DNA of 5,489 nucleotides, taken from NCBI GenBank assembly GCA_041623475.1, contig JBFJWU010000242.1, positions 1 through 5,489 on the forward strand, read 5' to 3'. Numbering within the stretch: position 1 is the stretch's first letter; every line of letters begins with the position of its first letter. The notes beneath the pieces are model-generated. The model saw only the letters and a list, made by a program, of their open reading frames with translations, searched no databases and was not told the DNA's origin. This document shows, piece after piece, positions 1,038 to 4,783 of this stretch. The translations under genes and the position numbers were made by a program. The DNA comes from JBFJWU01 sp041623475 [NCBI: bacterium]. Its GTDB lineage: Bacteria; J088.

Positions 1038-1059
1038 AATTCCGGCGCATTCCGGAATT
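1038..1059. repeat. Perfect 8-bp inverted repeat in the divergent gap (possible operator or leader hairpin)
   Basis: The left arm AATTCCGG (1038-1045) and right arm CCGGAATT (1052-1059) are exact complements separated by 6 bases; a G-U pair could extend the RNA stem. The repeat lies upstream of the SDR -10 candidate, between it and the likely -35 zone, and just downstream of the plus-strand -10-like hexamer. Its right arm includes the first base of the TTG start of the LtrA-Kir gene. It could be a repressor site controlling both divergent genes, or an RNA hairpin limiting translation of LtrA-Kir. The repeat itself is certain; the role is inferred. Confidence 0.55.
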
Positions 1060-3212
1060 TGATACGCTGGAGAACCAACTGGCATCAACCCAACCTGGAT
1101 CATGTCGACGTGAAAAATCGCTGGTTTCATCCCCCCGAACTCCACAGCCCCGCACCTGGTACCGAACGCAGTGTCGGCTGGCTGGAGCTGTTCTATGACC
1201 TGATCTACGTTGCGACAATTATCCAGTTGGGTAATGCCCTGTCATCCCACGTCGGTGTCCTGGGATTCCTGGCATTTGCCGGCCTGTTCGCACCGGTCTG
1301 GTTGCTGTGGACAGGATTTACGTTCTACTCCAATCGCTTTGTCGTCAATGACTTTCTGCATCGGGCGATCGTTTTTTTGCAGATGTTCGCCGTCGGCGGA
1401 ATGGCCGTCTATATCCCCGAGGTCATCGATGGCGACACCCGGGGCTTTGCGTTGTGCTATGCCTTTGCCCGGTACTGTATCGTCGGATTGTACGTCCGTT
1501 CGCTGCTGCAAACCCCCGCATCGCGCGAGTTCAGCAAGCACCGGGTCCTGGTCTTTTCTGCAGAGGCGACGATCTGGCTGATATCGGCGTTCCTGCCGTC
1601 ACCGTGGGTCTACGTCTGCTGGGCGCTGGGCCTGGGCATTGCCCTGTCGATCCCGCTCAGCCGTCATTCGCGGGACCTGTCGTTGCGCTACCCGCCTGAT
1701 GTCCTGCACATGTCCGAACGTTACGGCCTGCTGATTATCATCGTCCTGGGCGAGTCATTTGTGAAGGTGCTGACCAGCGTCTACGAAGCCACACCGACCC
1801 CGCAAACCGTATCCATGGCCGCACTGGTCCTGATCATTACCTGCAGCCTGTGGTGGATCTATTTCGATGACGTTGCCGGGTCACGTATCAAAGCCAAGCG
1901 GGCGGCTTCGTTTGTCTGGATCTATACGCACCTGCCCCTGACCATGGCCATCACGGCGACCGGCGTCGCTGTCAAGAAAATTGTTTTCCTCGATCCATTT
2001 ATCCCTGCACCGGACAAGTACCGCTGGCTGGTCTGCGTCACCCTGGCCATGGTGTTTTTGTTTGTCGGGATCATTGATGCCGTGACTGAGCGGCGGCAAT
2101 CCGACCTGAGCGACCGCACCCGGGTCAACTCGCGAATTGCGTCGGCCTTTGTGGTCATGCTGCTGGCACCCACCGGCGCATTCCTGCCAACGTGGGTGTT
2201 TGTCCTTGGCCTGGTGGGACTGTGCGTCGGCCAGGTGGTTTTTGACCTGATGGCCGCGCCGCTCGAGGCTGACGAGGAAATGGCCAAACACGATGCCCAG
2301 GGTGCGGTCGGATTTGGCGACCAGTCCCTGGCCGAAAAGACGGACGAAAAAACGCGCCGGATGGTCGCCAGCGACGCGATCCTGCGTGGCACCCCCAACG
2401 AACTGCGCCGCGATATGTACTTCTACTTTATGGAGGGATCGTGGTGGCGATTGATGCTGTCGCTGCTGGCGATGTATGTGTTTGTCAATTTCATCTTTGC
2501 CGCATTGTTCATGCTCGAGCCCGGTTCGGTAGACGGCGTCGAGACGCTTGCAGAAGCGTTCTTTTTCAGCGTCCAGACGATGTCGACGATCGGCTACGGG
2601 GTCATGTCGCCGCTGACGCAGTATGGGCACGTGCTGGTCACCATCGAGGCCGCCCTGGGTCTGTTGGGCGTAGCCCTGGCCACGGGACTGATGTTTGCAA
2701 AGGCTGCTCGACCCAGTGCCGCCATCCTGTTCAGTGATGTCGTTGTTGTTACGCGGCACAACGGGATCGATACGCTGATGATCCGGGCCGGAAATGCCCG
2801 CGGCAACGATGTCGTCGACGCGGCGGTCACAGTCGCGGTCCTCAAGTCAGAAGTCAGCCCCGAGGGCCACGAAATGCGCAAGTTATACGACCTGCAACTG
2901 CGTCGCAGCCGCCAGCCGATCTTTATCCTGTCCTGGACGATCATCCACGAAATTGACGAAAACAGTCCCCTGTACGGAATCGACTGGGACAATCTGGACG
3001 ACCACCTGGCGACGATGATCATTACGATGACCGGTCACGACGGCACCTACGGTCAGACGACGTATGCACGGCAACAGTATTTCGCCGAGGACTTCCGGGT
3101 CGGGCACCGGTTTGTGGATATTCTGTCTGATATGGACGACGGACGATTGCTGGTCGATTACACCAGGTTTCATTCCACCGAACCGGACCCCGCCTTCGGC
3201 GGGTCGGCCTGA
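1059..3212 (+). CDS. LtrA domain - inward-rectifier K+ channel (KirBac) fusion protein
   Basis: This is a 717-residue membrane protein joining two families in one uninterrupted frame. Residues about 38-400 are an LtrA (low temperature requirement A) domain with about 10-12 hydrophobic segments. They carry the hallmark ELFYDL (43-48), a SERYGL...VLGES helix (219-233), LWWIYFDD (264-271) and the YTHLPL helix (289-294). Residues about 408-706 are a complete KirBac-type channel: N-terminal GFGD...RRMV segment (418-435), amphipathic slide helix (about 445-459), outer helix (462-485), pore helix AEAFFFSVQTMS (498-509), selectivity filter TIGYG (510-514), inner helix (522-548) with hinge G534, then the RP hinge (551-552) and the immunoglobulin-like cytoplasmic gating domain (about 553-706). 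That domain includes SEVSPEGHEMRKLYDL and SWTIIHEID. The Kir part should form a tetrameric K+ channel in the inner membrane. The role of LtrA is not established. The start is uncertain: TTG 1059 has no clear Shine-Dalgarno and overlaps an inverted repeat; GTG 1110 (700 residues) is an alternative that keeps both domains. The stop lies 5 bases from the convergent hydrolase stop. Confidence 0.9.
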   Translation: MIRWRTNWHQPNLDHVDVKNRWFHPPELHSPAPGTERSVGWLELFYDLIYVATIIQLGNALSSHVGVLGFLAFAGLFAPVWLLWTGFTFYSNRFVVNDFLHRAIVFLQMFAVGGMAVYIPEVIDGDTRGFALCYAFARYCIVGLYVRSLLQTPASREFSKHRVLVFSAEATIWLISAFLPSPWVYVCWALGLGIALSIPLSRHSRDLSLRYPPDVLHMSERYGLLIIIVLGESFVKVLTSVYEATPTPQTVSMAALVLIITCSLWWIYFDDVAGSRIKAKRAASFVWIYTHLPLTMAITATGVAVKKIVFLDPFIPAPDKYRWLVCVTLAMVFLFVGIIDAVTERRQSDLSDRTRVNSRIASAFVVMLLAPTGAFLPTWVFVLGLVGLCVGQVVFDLMAAPLEADEEMAKHDAQGAVGFGDQSLAEKTDEKTRRMVASDAILRGTPNELRRDMYFYFMEGSWWRLMLSLLAMYVFVNFIFAALFMLEPGSVDGVETLAEAFFFSVQTMSTIGYGVMSPLTQYGHVLVTIEAALGLLGVALATGLMFAKAARPSAAILFSDVVVVTRHNGIDTLMIRAGNARGNDVVDAAVTVAVLKSEVSPEGHEMRKLYDLQLRRSRQPIFILSWTIIHEIDENSPLYGIDWDNLDDHLATMIITMTGHDGTYGQTTYARQQYFAEDFRVGHRFVDILSDMDDGRLLVDYTRFHSTEPDPAFGGSA
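2280..3212 (+). other. Possible internal translation start giving a stand-alone Kir channel
   Basis: In-frame ATG 2280 is codon 408 of the fusion, exactly between the last LtrA membrane segment (ending about residue 400) and the Kir N-terminal segment. Starting here would give 310 residues, close to the usual KirBac length of about 300-330. A GAGG lies 11 bases upstream (2265-2268) and a second GAGG only a few bases upstream, so ribosome entry is plausible but spacing is not ideal. It may be a working internal start or the relic of a once separate channel gene. Confidence 0.3.
3189..3203. terminator. Stem-loop at the convergent gene ends (possible bidirectional terminator, no T-tract)
   Basis: CCCGCC (3189-3194) pairs with GGCGGG (3198-3203) around a 3-base loop TTC, giving a GC-rich 6-bp stem. 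It lies inside the last codons of LtrA-Kir and 15-29 bases beyond the hydrolase stop, so it could end transcription on either strand. No T run follows in either direction, so it is not a standard intrinsic terminator. It encodes part of the PDPAFGGSA tail beyond the Kir fold. Confidence 0.35.
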
Positions 3213-3213
3213 C

Positions 3214-3225
3214 CAGGCTAGCCTG
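3214..3225. repeat. 12-bp perfect palindrome across the hydrolase stop codon
   Basis: CAGGCTAGCCTG is its own reverse complement and contains the hydrolase TAG stop (3218-3220). It lies 11 bases right of the 3189-3203 stem-loop. It may contribute to 3'-end structure of the convergent transcripts; chance is also plausible at this length. Confidence 0.35.
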
Positions 3226-4314: not shown

Positions 4315-4331
4315 GCCGCCGTTCAGGCGGC
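4315..4331. repeat. 6-bp stem-loop between the coiled-coil gene and the hydrolase gene
   Basis: GCCGCC (4315-4320) and GGCGGC (4326-4331) are exact complements around GTTCA. The stem includes the last base of the coiled-coil gene's TAG stop (4331-4333) and covers the place where a -35 for the hydrolase would sit. On the minus strand no T-tract follows, so it may be a weak terminator, an mRNA 3'-end stabiliser or an operator. Confidence 0.45.
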
Positions 4332-4783
4332 TAGAAGAATATTTCCCACAGCCACTCGCCGCCCAGGTACCGATGGACATACAGGGTGATCCACGCGGAC
4401 GAAATCAGGCCCGATATCACGCCTGTCACCATGCTGATGGCTGCAGCGTTGCGAACCAGCGCACCCACATAGTCACGACCCAGCCGTGATCGAAATCGCT
4501 CGACTTTGTCCAGCCCGTCTGAATGCTGCTGACGCATCTGGGCAATGTGCTCGGCCAGGTCGCCCAGCACGCCGCCAACACTGCGCAACTGCTCGTCCCG
4601 GACCCGTTCAAATTCAGCCAGCCGGGCCGCAGAAGCGGTCAGGTTCGCCTCGAATCGGGCCTGCATATTGGCCAGCGAATGCACCAGCTCCTGGACTTCG
4701 GCCAGCGCGGCCTGTTCCTGGTTTGAAAGCCACCCGCTCATTTGGTTTGCGGGTCCGTCCAGATGATCCTGCCGTGAAAGCAT
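4331..4783 (-). CDS. Small coiled-coil protein with a C-terminal transmembrane segment, function unknown
   Basis: This 150-residue protein belongs to no family I recognise. Residues about 20-100 are charged, Ala/Leu/Gln-rich and helical, with hydrophobic residues at roughly heptad spacing (for example L27, V30, L33, L37, M40, F44, L48), and look like a coiled coil. Residues about 108-136 form one hydrophobic helix (ALVRNAAAISMVTGVISGLI and onward), followed by a short tail rich in Trp and Phe (GGEWLWEIFF). The layout suggests a tail-anchored protein whose long helical part probably faces the cytoplasm and oligomerises. The start at ATG 4783 is well supported: AAGGAG lies 7 bases upstream. It is followed by the hydrolase after 39 bases on the same strand, so the two may act together at the membrane, but nothing in the sequence shows this directly. 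Confidence 0.75.
   Translation of the reverse strand: MLSRQDHLDGPANQMSGWLSNQEQAALAEVQELVHSLANMQARFEANLTASAARLAEFERVRDEQLRSVGGVLGDLAEHIAQMRQQHSDGLDKVERFRSRLGRDYVGALVRNAAAISMVTGVISGLISSAWITLYVHRYLGGEWLWEIFF

What the first reader, a model, noticed from the sequence alone, without database searches (positions are those of the whole stretch)
1059..3212. LtrA membrane domain fused to a complete KirBac potassium channel
A single uninterrupted frame carries the LtrA hallmarks (ELFYDL, VLGES, LWWIYFDD) and then a full Kir channel with the TIGYG filter and cytoplasmic gating domain. LtrA proteins have no settled function, and Kir channels are normally stand-alone. The fusion suggests that LtrA senses something (lipid, temperature, voltage, a ligand) or transports something tied to K+ flow, and that the tetrameric channel would assemble four LtrA units around one pore. 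I do not recall this architecture as a described system.
Basis: partly seen in the sequence, partly recalled or inferred. Interest (0 to 1): 0.85.

Follow-up and report, generated by a model that had tools for sequence, protein, structure and literature searches.

The report
LtrA–KirBac potassium channel fusion
A family of bacterial proteins joins a potassium channel of the inward-rectifier type to a membrane domain called LtrA, whose function is unsettled; its predicted fold matches TMEM175, a second and unrelated kind of potassium channel, which gives LtrA a testable role.

Summary
One open frame encodes an LtrA domain (Pfam E 2.5e-73) followed by a KirBac-type K+ channel (IRK_C 2.9e-26, TIGYG filter). 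Homologues place the likely start at GTG 1110, giving 700 residues. It is not a merging error: of 80 loci kept from genome contigs, 40 are of the fusion type and 35 of these are uninterrupted and full length, in Myxococcota, Acidobacteriota, Verrucomicrobiota and Bdellovibrionota, two with strain names rather than MAG titles. In trees of either half the fusions share one branch; solo LtrA and solo Kir proteins nested in it suggest later loss of one half.

The main new point is LtrA's fold. Modelled alone (pLDDT 91.6) it matches TMEM175, a K+ channel without a P-loop, over 347 residues at Z 27.3; the best other chain scores 8.4. Sequence support is weak: two TMEM175 proteins hit Pfam LtrA in register (4.2e-7 and 2.3e-4, under the cut-off), but profile–profile comparison was not significant.

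So two different K+-channel folds sit in one chain. The Kir pore very probably conducts; whether LtrA gates it, conducts, or rides along is open. Five term searches of an open-licence paper library found neither the fusion nor the LtrA–TMEM175 link.

The parts
1110..3212 (+). LtrA-KirBac fusion gene, likely start GTG 1110, stop 3210-3212, 700 aa (open frame runs from TTG 1059)
   Evidence: start from the conserved N-terminal motif in homologues; Pfam on all 36 rows of A1
1179..2255 (+). LtrA domain, 12 predicted membrane helices in two 6-helix repeats (residues 24-382), TMEM175 fold
   Evidence: Pfam LtrA residues 22-368 of the 700-aa form; AF2 pLDDT 91.6, pTM 0.89; VIA-align Z 27.3 to 6w8o, a TMEM175 entry
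1179..1199 (+). TM1 motif W24-L-E-L-F28-Y-D30, in the register of TMEM175 RxxxFSD
   Evidence: W24, E26, D30 in 36 of 36 fusions; register from HMM alignments of TMEM175 proteins L179, L181 to LtrA
1719..1757 (+). TM7 motif R204-x-x-x-L208 ... G214-E215-S216 (second repeat; register to RxxxFSD is inferred by eye)
   Evidence: R204, G214 in 36 of 36; E215 in 35 of 36
2256..2369 (+). Variable linker (roughly residues 383-420) between LtrA TM12 and the KirBac N-terminus
   Evidence: 31-49 residues between P384 and R425, 15% mean pairwise identity; pLDDT under 50 at 389-417
2370..3191 (+). KirBac channel: slide-helix region, two TM helices, pore helix and filter, cytoplasmic Kir domain
   Evidence: phmmer 438-711 of the 717-aa frame to 7swj, 3.4e-65; Z about 22 to KirBac3.1 in the full model
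2586..2600 (+). Selectivity filter TIGYG
   Evidence: [TS][IVL]G[YF]G in 36 of 36
2724..3182 (+). IRK_C cytoplasmic domain
   Evidence: 2.9e-26

Best explanation
The gene encodes the subunit of a KirBac-type K+ channel that carries, at its N-terminus, a 12-helix membrane domain of the TMEM175 fold (LtrA). Four subunits assemble around one Kir pore, which passes K+ through the TIGYG filter and is gated at the inner helices by the cytoplasmic Kir domain. Each subunit adds an LtrA unit beside the pore, with both its ends in the cytoplasm, joined by a flexible linker of 31-49 residues to the start of the Kir slide-helix region. I think the LtrA unit most likely sets the activity of the Kir pore, through contacts in the membrane and at the slide helix, in response to the ions or protons that its own TMEM175-like core binds or passes; the arrangement would resemble SUR with Kir6 (recalled), but in one chain. 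Shown here by computation: the fusion, its conservation, the single branch, the predicted fold of LtrA. Suggested by computation: N-in/C-in topology. Inferred from family knowledge: tetramer, K+ conduction. Inferred with little support: that LtrA regulates Kir.
For: Both halves are intact and similarly conserved: mean pairwise identity 47% (LtrA) and 51% (Kir) against 15% in the linker. Filter kept in 36 of 36. The LtrA-only model matches ten TMEM175 entries at Z 27.3 to 21.1 and two MtTMEM175 entries, on the first repeat, at 12.7 and 11.6; the next chain has 8.4. Four of the ten (6w8n, 6w8o, 6w8p, 7lf6) do not name TMEM175 in their titles but share the sequence of 6wc9, named TMEM175. Foldseek: the first 6 rows (5 entries) are TMEM175, probability 1.00, TM-score 0.56-0.68, E 2.2e-4 to 1.8e-3. 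Sequence: TMEM175 proteins L179 (TMEM175 5.1e-16) and L181 (7.2e-16) also hit Pfam LtrA at 4.2e-7 and 2.3e-4, starting within two residues of the TMEM175 match. Topology: K+R 14.7 per chain on the side of the N-terminus, 3.1 on the other, so the LtrA C-terminus and the Kir N-terminus would lie on the same side. The fusion is kept in four phyla.
Against: The linker is neither conserved nor ordered in the model, so there is no sign of a stiff lever. Halves occur alone inside the fusion branch: Kir in L040, L041/L209 and L210, the first two in genomes without any LtrA match (0 of 2); LtrA in L208, whose genome has no other match at 1e-40, and in L092, whose genome also holds a fusion. So Kir at least can do without LtrA. 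My crude neighbour comparison found no family at more than 3 loci, so context gives no function. No multimer was modelled. Residues fixed in the fusions (A35, I38, K219) are also in the printed sequence of solo LtrA L208, so they are not signs of coupling. D+E are also richer on the N-terminal side (15.9 against 6.2), so the topology call rests on K+R alone. Foldseek E-values are modest: four more TMEM175 entries come at 0.12-0.55 among unrelated chains, and a MOP transporter is rank 7 (E 0.02). L179 also hits Bac_rhodopsin at 5.5e-4, and the LtrA profile hit L180, by eye a GGDEF protein, at 9.3e-4, so weak membrane-protein hits of that size can be chance.
Confidence: 0.5

Rival explanations
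1. LtrA is itself a channel: two LtrA units pair as in TMEM175, TM1 and TM7 of each lining a pore, so that one tetramer holds a Kir pore and two LtrA pores.
For: Fold of TMEM175, whose vertebrate form has two 6-TM repeats and is a dimer (PMC7176437, passages). D30 of repeat 1 and R204 of repeat 2 are both unchanged in all 63 LtrA rows compared; in MtTMEM175 Arg24 interacts with His77 and Asp30 of the next subunit (PMC7176437, passages). Solo LtrA proteins exist in many groups.
Against: The threonine of the TMEM175 K+ selectivity layer (Thr38 in MtTMEM175) is I in 34 of 36 fusions and S or A in 19 of 26 solo LtrA. R24 is W24 and the second repeat lacks FSD. A conserved E215 sits, by inferred register, at the gate position. 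Pfam TMEM175 does not match the window at E up to 0.1.
Confidence: 0.25
2. LtrA is a separate transporter whose substrate flux is balanced by the K+ leak of the fused Kir; fusion only fixes the 1:1 ratio and place.
For: Flexible linker; halves occur alone; many conserved charged residues in LtrA.
Against: The best fold matches are to a channel; the one transporter near the top of Foldseek, a MOP protein, has TM-score 0.19.
Confidence: 0.15
3. LtrA only helps assembly, stability or placement of the channel.
For: Some Kir-only relatives inside the branch lack it.
Against: LtrA is nearly as conserved as the Kir part (47% against 51% mean pairwise identity) with 31 invariant positions in 36 sequences; a mere anchor would be expected to drift.
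Confidence: 0.08
4. Artefact: two neighbouring genes merged by a sequencing or assembly error.
For: 2 of 40 fusion-type loci (L036, L079) are broken by frame changes.
Against: 35 uninterrupted full-length homologues, including the complete genome of Sulfidibacter corallicola (L019) and Acanthopleuribacter pedis strain KCTC 12899 (L026).
Confidence: 0.01

Closest known systems
KirBac1.1 / KirBac3.1, prokaryotic inward rectifier K+ channels
   Same: Slide-helix region, two TM helices, GYG filter, cytoplasmic Kir domain; 3.4e-65 (7swj; that it is KirBac1.1 is recalled) and 1.1e-55 (KirBac3.1) by phmmer, Z about 22 to KirBac3.1.
   Different: The best solved KirBac chains are about 300-330 residues long, the match beginning at their residue 36; here a 12-TM domain precedes it. 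The pore-helix Q of the fusions is shared by all 40 solo Kir proteins fetched, but these were partly picked by a pattern holding that Q.
TMEM175 (lysosomal K+ channel; bacterial CmTMEM175, MtTMEM175)
   Same: Fold of LtrA: 12 helices in two 6-TM repeats, as in the vertebrate protein (PMC7176437, passages); F-x-D at the start of TM1 in register.
   Different: About 8% identity; R of RxxxFSD is W and S is Y in repeat 1; no FSD in repeat 2; selectivity threonine absent in fusions; Pfam TMEM175 not matched by the window. Bacterial TMEM175 has one repeat (PMC7176437, passages).
LtrA, Pfam PF06772 (low temperature requirement A of Listeria)
   Same: Clear member over nearly the whole profile.
   Different: The solo members with annotated ends are about 380-416 aa; open frames of others mostly 390-450. 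Needed for cold growth in Listeria (Zheng and Kathariou, as reported in PMC5491136, passages); that its molecular function is unsettled is from the finding and recall.
SUR1 with Kir6.2 (K-ATP channel), analogy only
   Same: A Kir tetramer with four larger membrane proteins around it (recalled).
   Different: SUR is an ABC protein on a separate chain (recalled); no homology claimed.
NirBac, non-selective KirBac relatives (PMC4607889, passages)
   Same: Variant of the KirBac group.
   Different: Differs in the pore loop; no added membrane domain in the passages seen.

Membership tests
KirBac / inward rectifier K+ channel | IRK_C cytoplasmic domain | tested here: met
   36 of 36 fusions
KirBac / inward rectifier K+ channel | TxGYG-type K+ filter in a two-TM pore | tested here: met
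   [TS][IVL]G[YF]G in 36 of 36; Ion_trans_2 in 36 of 36; KirBac3.1 fold. The IRK TM model itself is below cut-off on the window and matches 29 of 36 at 0.001
KirBac / inward rectifier K+ channel | Tetramer that conducts K+ | not testable with these tools
   No multimer prediction or assay available
LtrA (PF06772) | Match over the full profile above the curated cut-off | tested here: met
   247.8 bits against 31.9, profile 2-354 of 356
TMEM175 | 6-TM or 2x6-TM fold of TMEM175 | tested here: met
   Predicted model: Z 27.3, rmsd 3.9, 347 residues aligned to 6w8o_A; best other chain 8.4; 6w8o is TMEM175
TMEM175 | Match to Pfam TMEM175 (PF06736) | tested here: not met
   No match at E up to 0.1
TMEM175 | RxxxFSD motif in each repeat | tested here: not met
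   Repeat 1 has WxxxFYD; repeat 2 has RxxxLx[IL]; register in repeat 2 inferred
TMEM175 | Threonine layer that gives K+ selectivity | tested here: not met
   Position 38 is I in 34 of 36 fusions; register from the alignment, feature from PMC7176437 passages
TMEM175 | Forms a cation-conducting pore | not testable with these tools
   Needs electrophysiology or flux assay

The most novel reading that the evidence does not exclude
A three-pore complex: four fused chains form one P-loop Kir pore and two TMEM175-type LtrA pores, two unrelated K+-channel designs evolved into one gene, with ion or proton flow through one controlling the other; LtrA at large would then be a family of ion channels.
Probability: 0.2. 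Interest if true: 0.95.

Novelty: new variant of a known kind. Interest (0 to 1): 0.78.

Why it matters
LtrA is a widespread bacterial membrane family without a settled function. Two independent facts now point the same way: its predicted fold is that of TMEM175, and evolution has fused it to a K+ channel. That makes the function of LtrA testable with standard K+ and H+ flux assays. If LtrA gates Kir, it is a new way of regulating an inward rectifier; if it conducts, two unrelated K+-channel designs share one chain.

Tried and rejected
Rejected or without result: (1) My early idea (notebook) that the pore-helix Q and the lost D after GYG mark the fusions. The solo Kir loci have the Q too, and one search pattern held it, so that sample cannot decide. 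(2) A conserved gene neighbourhood: among 252 flanking ORFs of 38 loci and the window, picked crudely by length, only two families occur at 3 loci, none at more, and neither holds a window neighbour; families at 2 loci were not printed. (3) Profile-profile proof of LtrA-TMEM175 homology: hhalign gave 0.8%, 0.3% and 1.3% probability for A2 whole, first and second half against TMEM175; the reversed control scored higher than the real one for the whole (3.4%), and six column shuffles gave 0.1-0.8%. With 63 LtrA rows it was 3.7% against 0.4% reversed, still not significant. LtrA HMM on 42 TMEM175 sequences: best 13.4 bits against 7.4 for 42 reversed and 6.7 for 840 shuffled, several of the real hits on the second repeat; TMEM175 HMM on 64 LtrA rows: best 9.3 bits against 6.2 reversed. 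Suggestive only. The A2 profile found no PDB chain at E up to 10. The case rests on structure plus the Pfam hits. (4) Repeat 1 against repeat 2 by hhalign: 0.4%, not significant. (5) An apparent 1523-aa frame holding the Kir of L072 has a stop codon in it, so dropped. (6) NCBIfam: two matches far under cut-off. (7) A scan of viral contigs found no relative; of 154 plasmid records with a match none covers 80% of the query in one place. (8) Paper searches with no paper: LtrA + low temperature requirement + potassium channel; LtrA + KirBac; TMEM175 + LtrA; TMEM175 + low temperature requirement; KirBac + TMEM175. Searches gave listings, of which I looked at passages of three papers. The library is open-licence PMC only, so this does not show that nothing is in print; I could not look at Pfam clans or AlphaFold DB clusters.

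Dropped before counts: L030, L037, L038 (cut by contig ends) and L036, L079 (broken frames) are not in A1; L205 (fragment) is left out of the position counts; L197, L205, L206 (long or partial) are left out of the LtrA trees. With L197 in, it fell inside the fusion set on a branch of 3.15.
Full report
What is there. The frame 1059-3212 (+) is open for 717 codons. Pfam finds LtrA (247.8 bits, cut-off 31.9), IRK_C (92.6, cut-off 22.5) and Ion_trans_2 (36.3, cut-off 22.5); the IRK transmembrane model is under its cut-off. The Kir part aligns over residues 438-711 to 7swj at 3.4e-65 and over 452-706 to KirBac3.1 at 1.1e-55. No whole genome is held for the window. Neighbours are an SDR oxidoreductase, an alpha/beta hydrolase, a short ORF without a confident family and the end of a cytochrome P450, all on the other strand; none is a K+ gene by these matches.

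It is a real fusion. A scan of genome contigs gave 331 pattern matches, 327 relatives, of which the best 80 were kept. Of the 80, 40 are of the fusion type: 35 uninterrupted and full length, 3 cut by contig ends (L030, L037, L038; the Kir part of L037 is not seen), 2 with broken frames (L036, L079). The other 40 match in the Kir part only. The titles and lineages name Myxococcota, Acidobacteriota (among them the complete genome of Sulfidibacter corallicola and Acanthopleuribacter pedis), Verrucomicrobiota and Bdellovibrionota; several are only 'uncultured proteobacterium' or 'bacterium'. They share an N-terminal motif near M-x-[SN]-R-W-[FY]-H-x-P-x-L-H, with few departures, so the window's start is most likely GTG 1110. 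All 36 proteins of A1 match LtrA, IRK_C and Ion_trans_2.

How common. A match spanning at least 650 of the 717 residues was found in 26 of 282 genomes drawn from the phylum of L001's genome, Myxococcota by its record title (5 of the 26 rows list one stop codon inside the match, not examined singly), in 2 of 297 from the phylum of Sulfidibacter, in 1 of 97 from the phylum of L039's genome and 1 of 145 from the phylum of L013's genome. These are not independent: the centres were chosen because they hold the fusion, and at least the hits are places already seen there. Acanthopleuribacter has two fusions (L085 and L091). Of 154 plasmid records with a match none covers 80% of the query.

One branch, with losses. 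In a tree of the Kir halves (36 fusions, 40 solo) all fusions fall in one set with SH-aLRT 100, with two solo Kir proteins of Halobacteriovorax nested inside; with three more solo rows, L209 (same genome as L041) and L210 join them inside and L212 stays out. The two Halobacteriovorax genomes have no LtrA match (0 of 2). In a tree of the LtrA halves the fusions form one set with solo L092, support 100, and with L208 too after it was added, support 100. No Kir remnant was found beside L092 or L208, though the genome of L092 also holds a fusion. The simplest reading is one fusion and later loss of either half. These are quick trees without bootstrap, and solo proteins are thinly and unevenly sampled.

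Fold of LtrA. The full model has mean pLDDT 84.4; LtrA alone 91.6, pTM 0.89. VIA-align puts ten TMEM175 entries first at Z 27.3 to 21.1 and two MtTMEM175 entries, aligned to the first repeat, at 12.7 and 11.6; the next chain, a cytochrome oxidase, has 8.4. Entries 6w8n, 6w8o, 6w8p and 7lf6, untitled as to protein, have the same sequence as 6wc9, named TMEM175. Foldseek gives TMEM175 in its first six rows, probability 1.00, TM-scores 0.56-0.68 by query length, E 2.2e-4 to 1.8e-3; a MOP transporter follows at 0.02 with TM-score 0.19, and four more TMEM175 entries come at 0.12-0.55. Identity is about 8% in the VIA alignments. Sequence supports it weakly but in register: TMEM175 proteins L179 and L181 (5.1e-16 and 7.2e-16 to Pfam TMEM175) also hit Pfam LtrA at 4.2e-7 and 2.3e-4, under LtrA's cut-off, and the alignment lays LtrA lELFyDLvF on TMEM175 IEGFSDAVF. 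Against this, L179 also hits Bac_rhodopsin at 5.5e-4, the LtrA profile also hit a GGDEF-like protein (L180, named by eye) at 9.3e-4, and direct hhalign was not significant. The loops of the model carry 14.7 K+R per chain on the N-terminal side and 3.1 on the other (D+E 15.9 and 6.2), which suggests that N- and C-terminus of LtrA are cytoplasmic, as the start of Kir requires.

What the positions say. The passages I read name, in MtTMEM175, Arg24, Phe28-Ser29-Asp30, Ala34, Leu35 (gate) and Thr38 (K+ selectivity), and a bond network with Trp74, His77 and Asn95 (PMC7176437, passages). By the TM1 register LtrA has W, F-Y-D, V, A and I there. D30 is kept in all 63 LtrA rows compared and R204 of the second repeat in all 63, while position 38 is I in 35 of 37 fusions but S or A in 19 of 26 solo proteins. 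E215, which by inferred register sits at the gate position of repeat 2, is kept in 60 of 63. So the frame of TMEM175 is kept but its K+ filter is not; LtrA should not be called a TMEM175 channel on this evidence. A35, I38 and K219, typical of the fusion branch, are also in the printed sequence of solo L208, so they mark the branch, not coupling to Kir.

How it probably works. The Kir filter is kept in 36 of 36, so K+ conduction as a tetramer is very likely from family knowledge. Each subunit then brings a 12-helix LtrA unit, linked by 31-49 poorly conserved residues. LtrA is nearly as conserved as the Kir part, so it probably does more than anchor. I favour regulation of Kir by LtrA, driven by ions or protons acting on the TMEM175-like core; a conducting LtrA is the main rival. 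Two other LtrA proteins carry different C-terminal domains: zf-UBP on L177 and Fer4_19 on L190, which fits LtrA as a membrane module paired with various effectors.

Known or not. Five term searches found no paper that holds LtrA with KirBac, potassium channel or TMEM175, or KirBac with TMEM175. The library holds open-licence papers only. I rate the fusion a new variant of the KirBac kind; the LtrA-TMEM175 link may be the more useful result.

Noticed in passing
L177 (same place as L119), + strand frame of 484 aa: An LtrA protein with a C-terminal zf-UBP zinc finger (2.5e-12).
   Followed up: partly
L190, + strand frame of 683 aa, genome G633 of the cyanobacterial draw: LtrA followed in the same frame by a Fer4_19 mono-cluster 4Fe-4S domain (3.2e-22).
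   Followed up: partly
L179, L181 (two loci of one genome, G329): TMEM175 proteins that also hit the LtrA profile; possible bridge between the families.
   Followed up: partly
L085 and L091, genome G002 (Acanthopleuribacter pedis): Two different LtrA-Kir fusions in one genome.
   Followed up: partly
L208 (G742), L092 (G008): Solo LtrA proteins inside the fusion branch without a Kir remnant beside them.
   Followed up: yes
window 3210-3218: The fusion gene and the alpha/beta hydrolase gene converge with a gap of 5 bases.
   Followed up: no
window 4331-4783, - strand: Short ORF of 150 aa without a confident Pfam match (best FUSC 0.002, under cut-off), with a likely C-terminal membrane helix by eye.
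   Followed up: no
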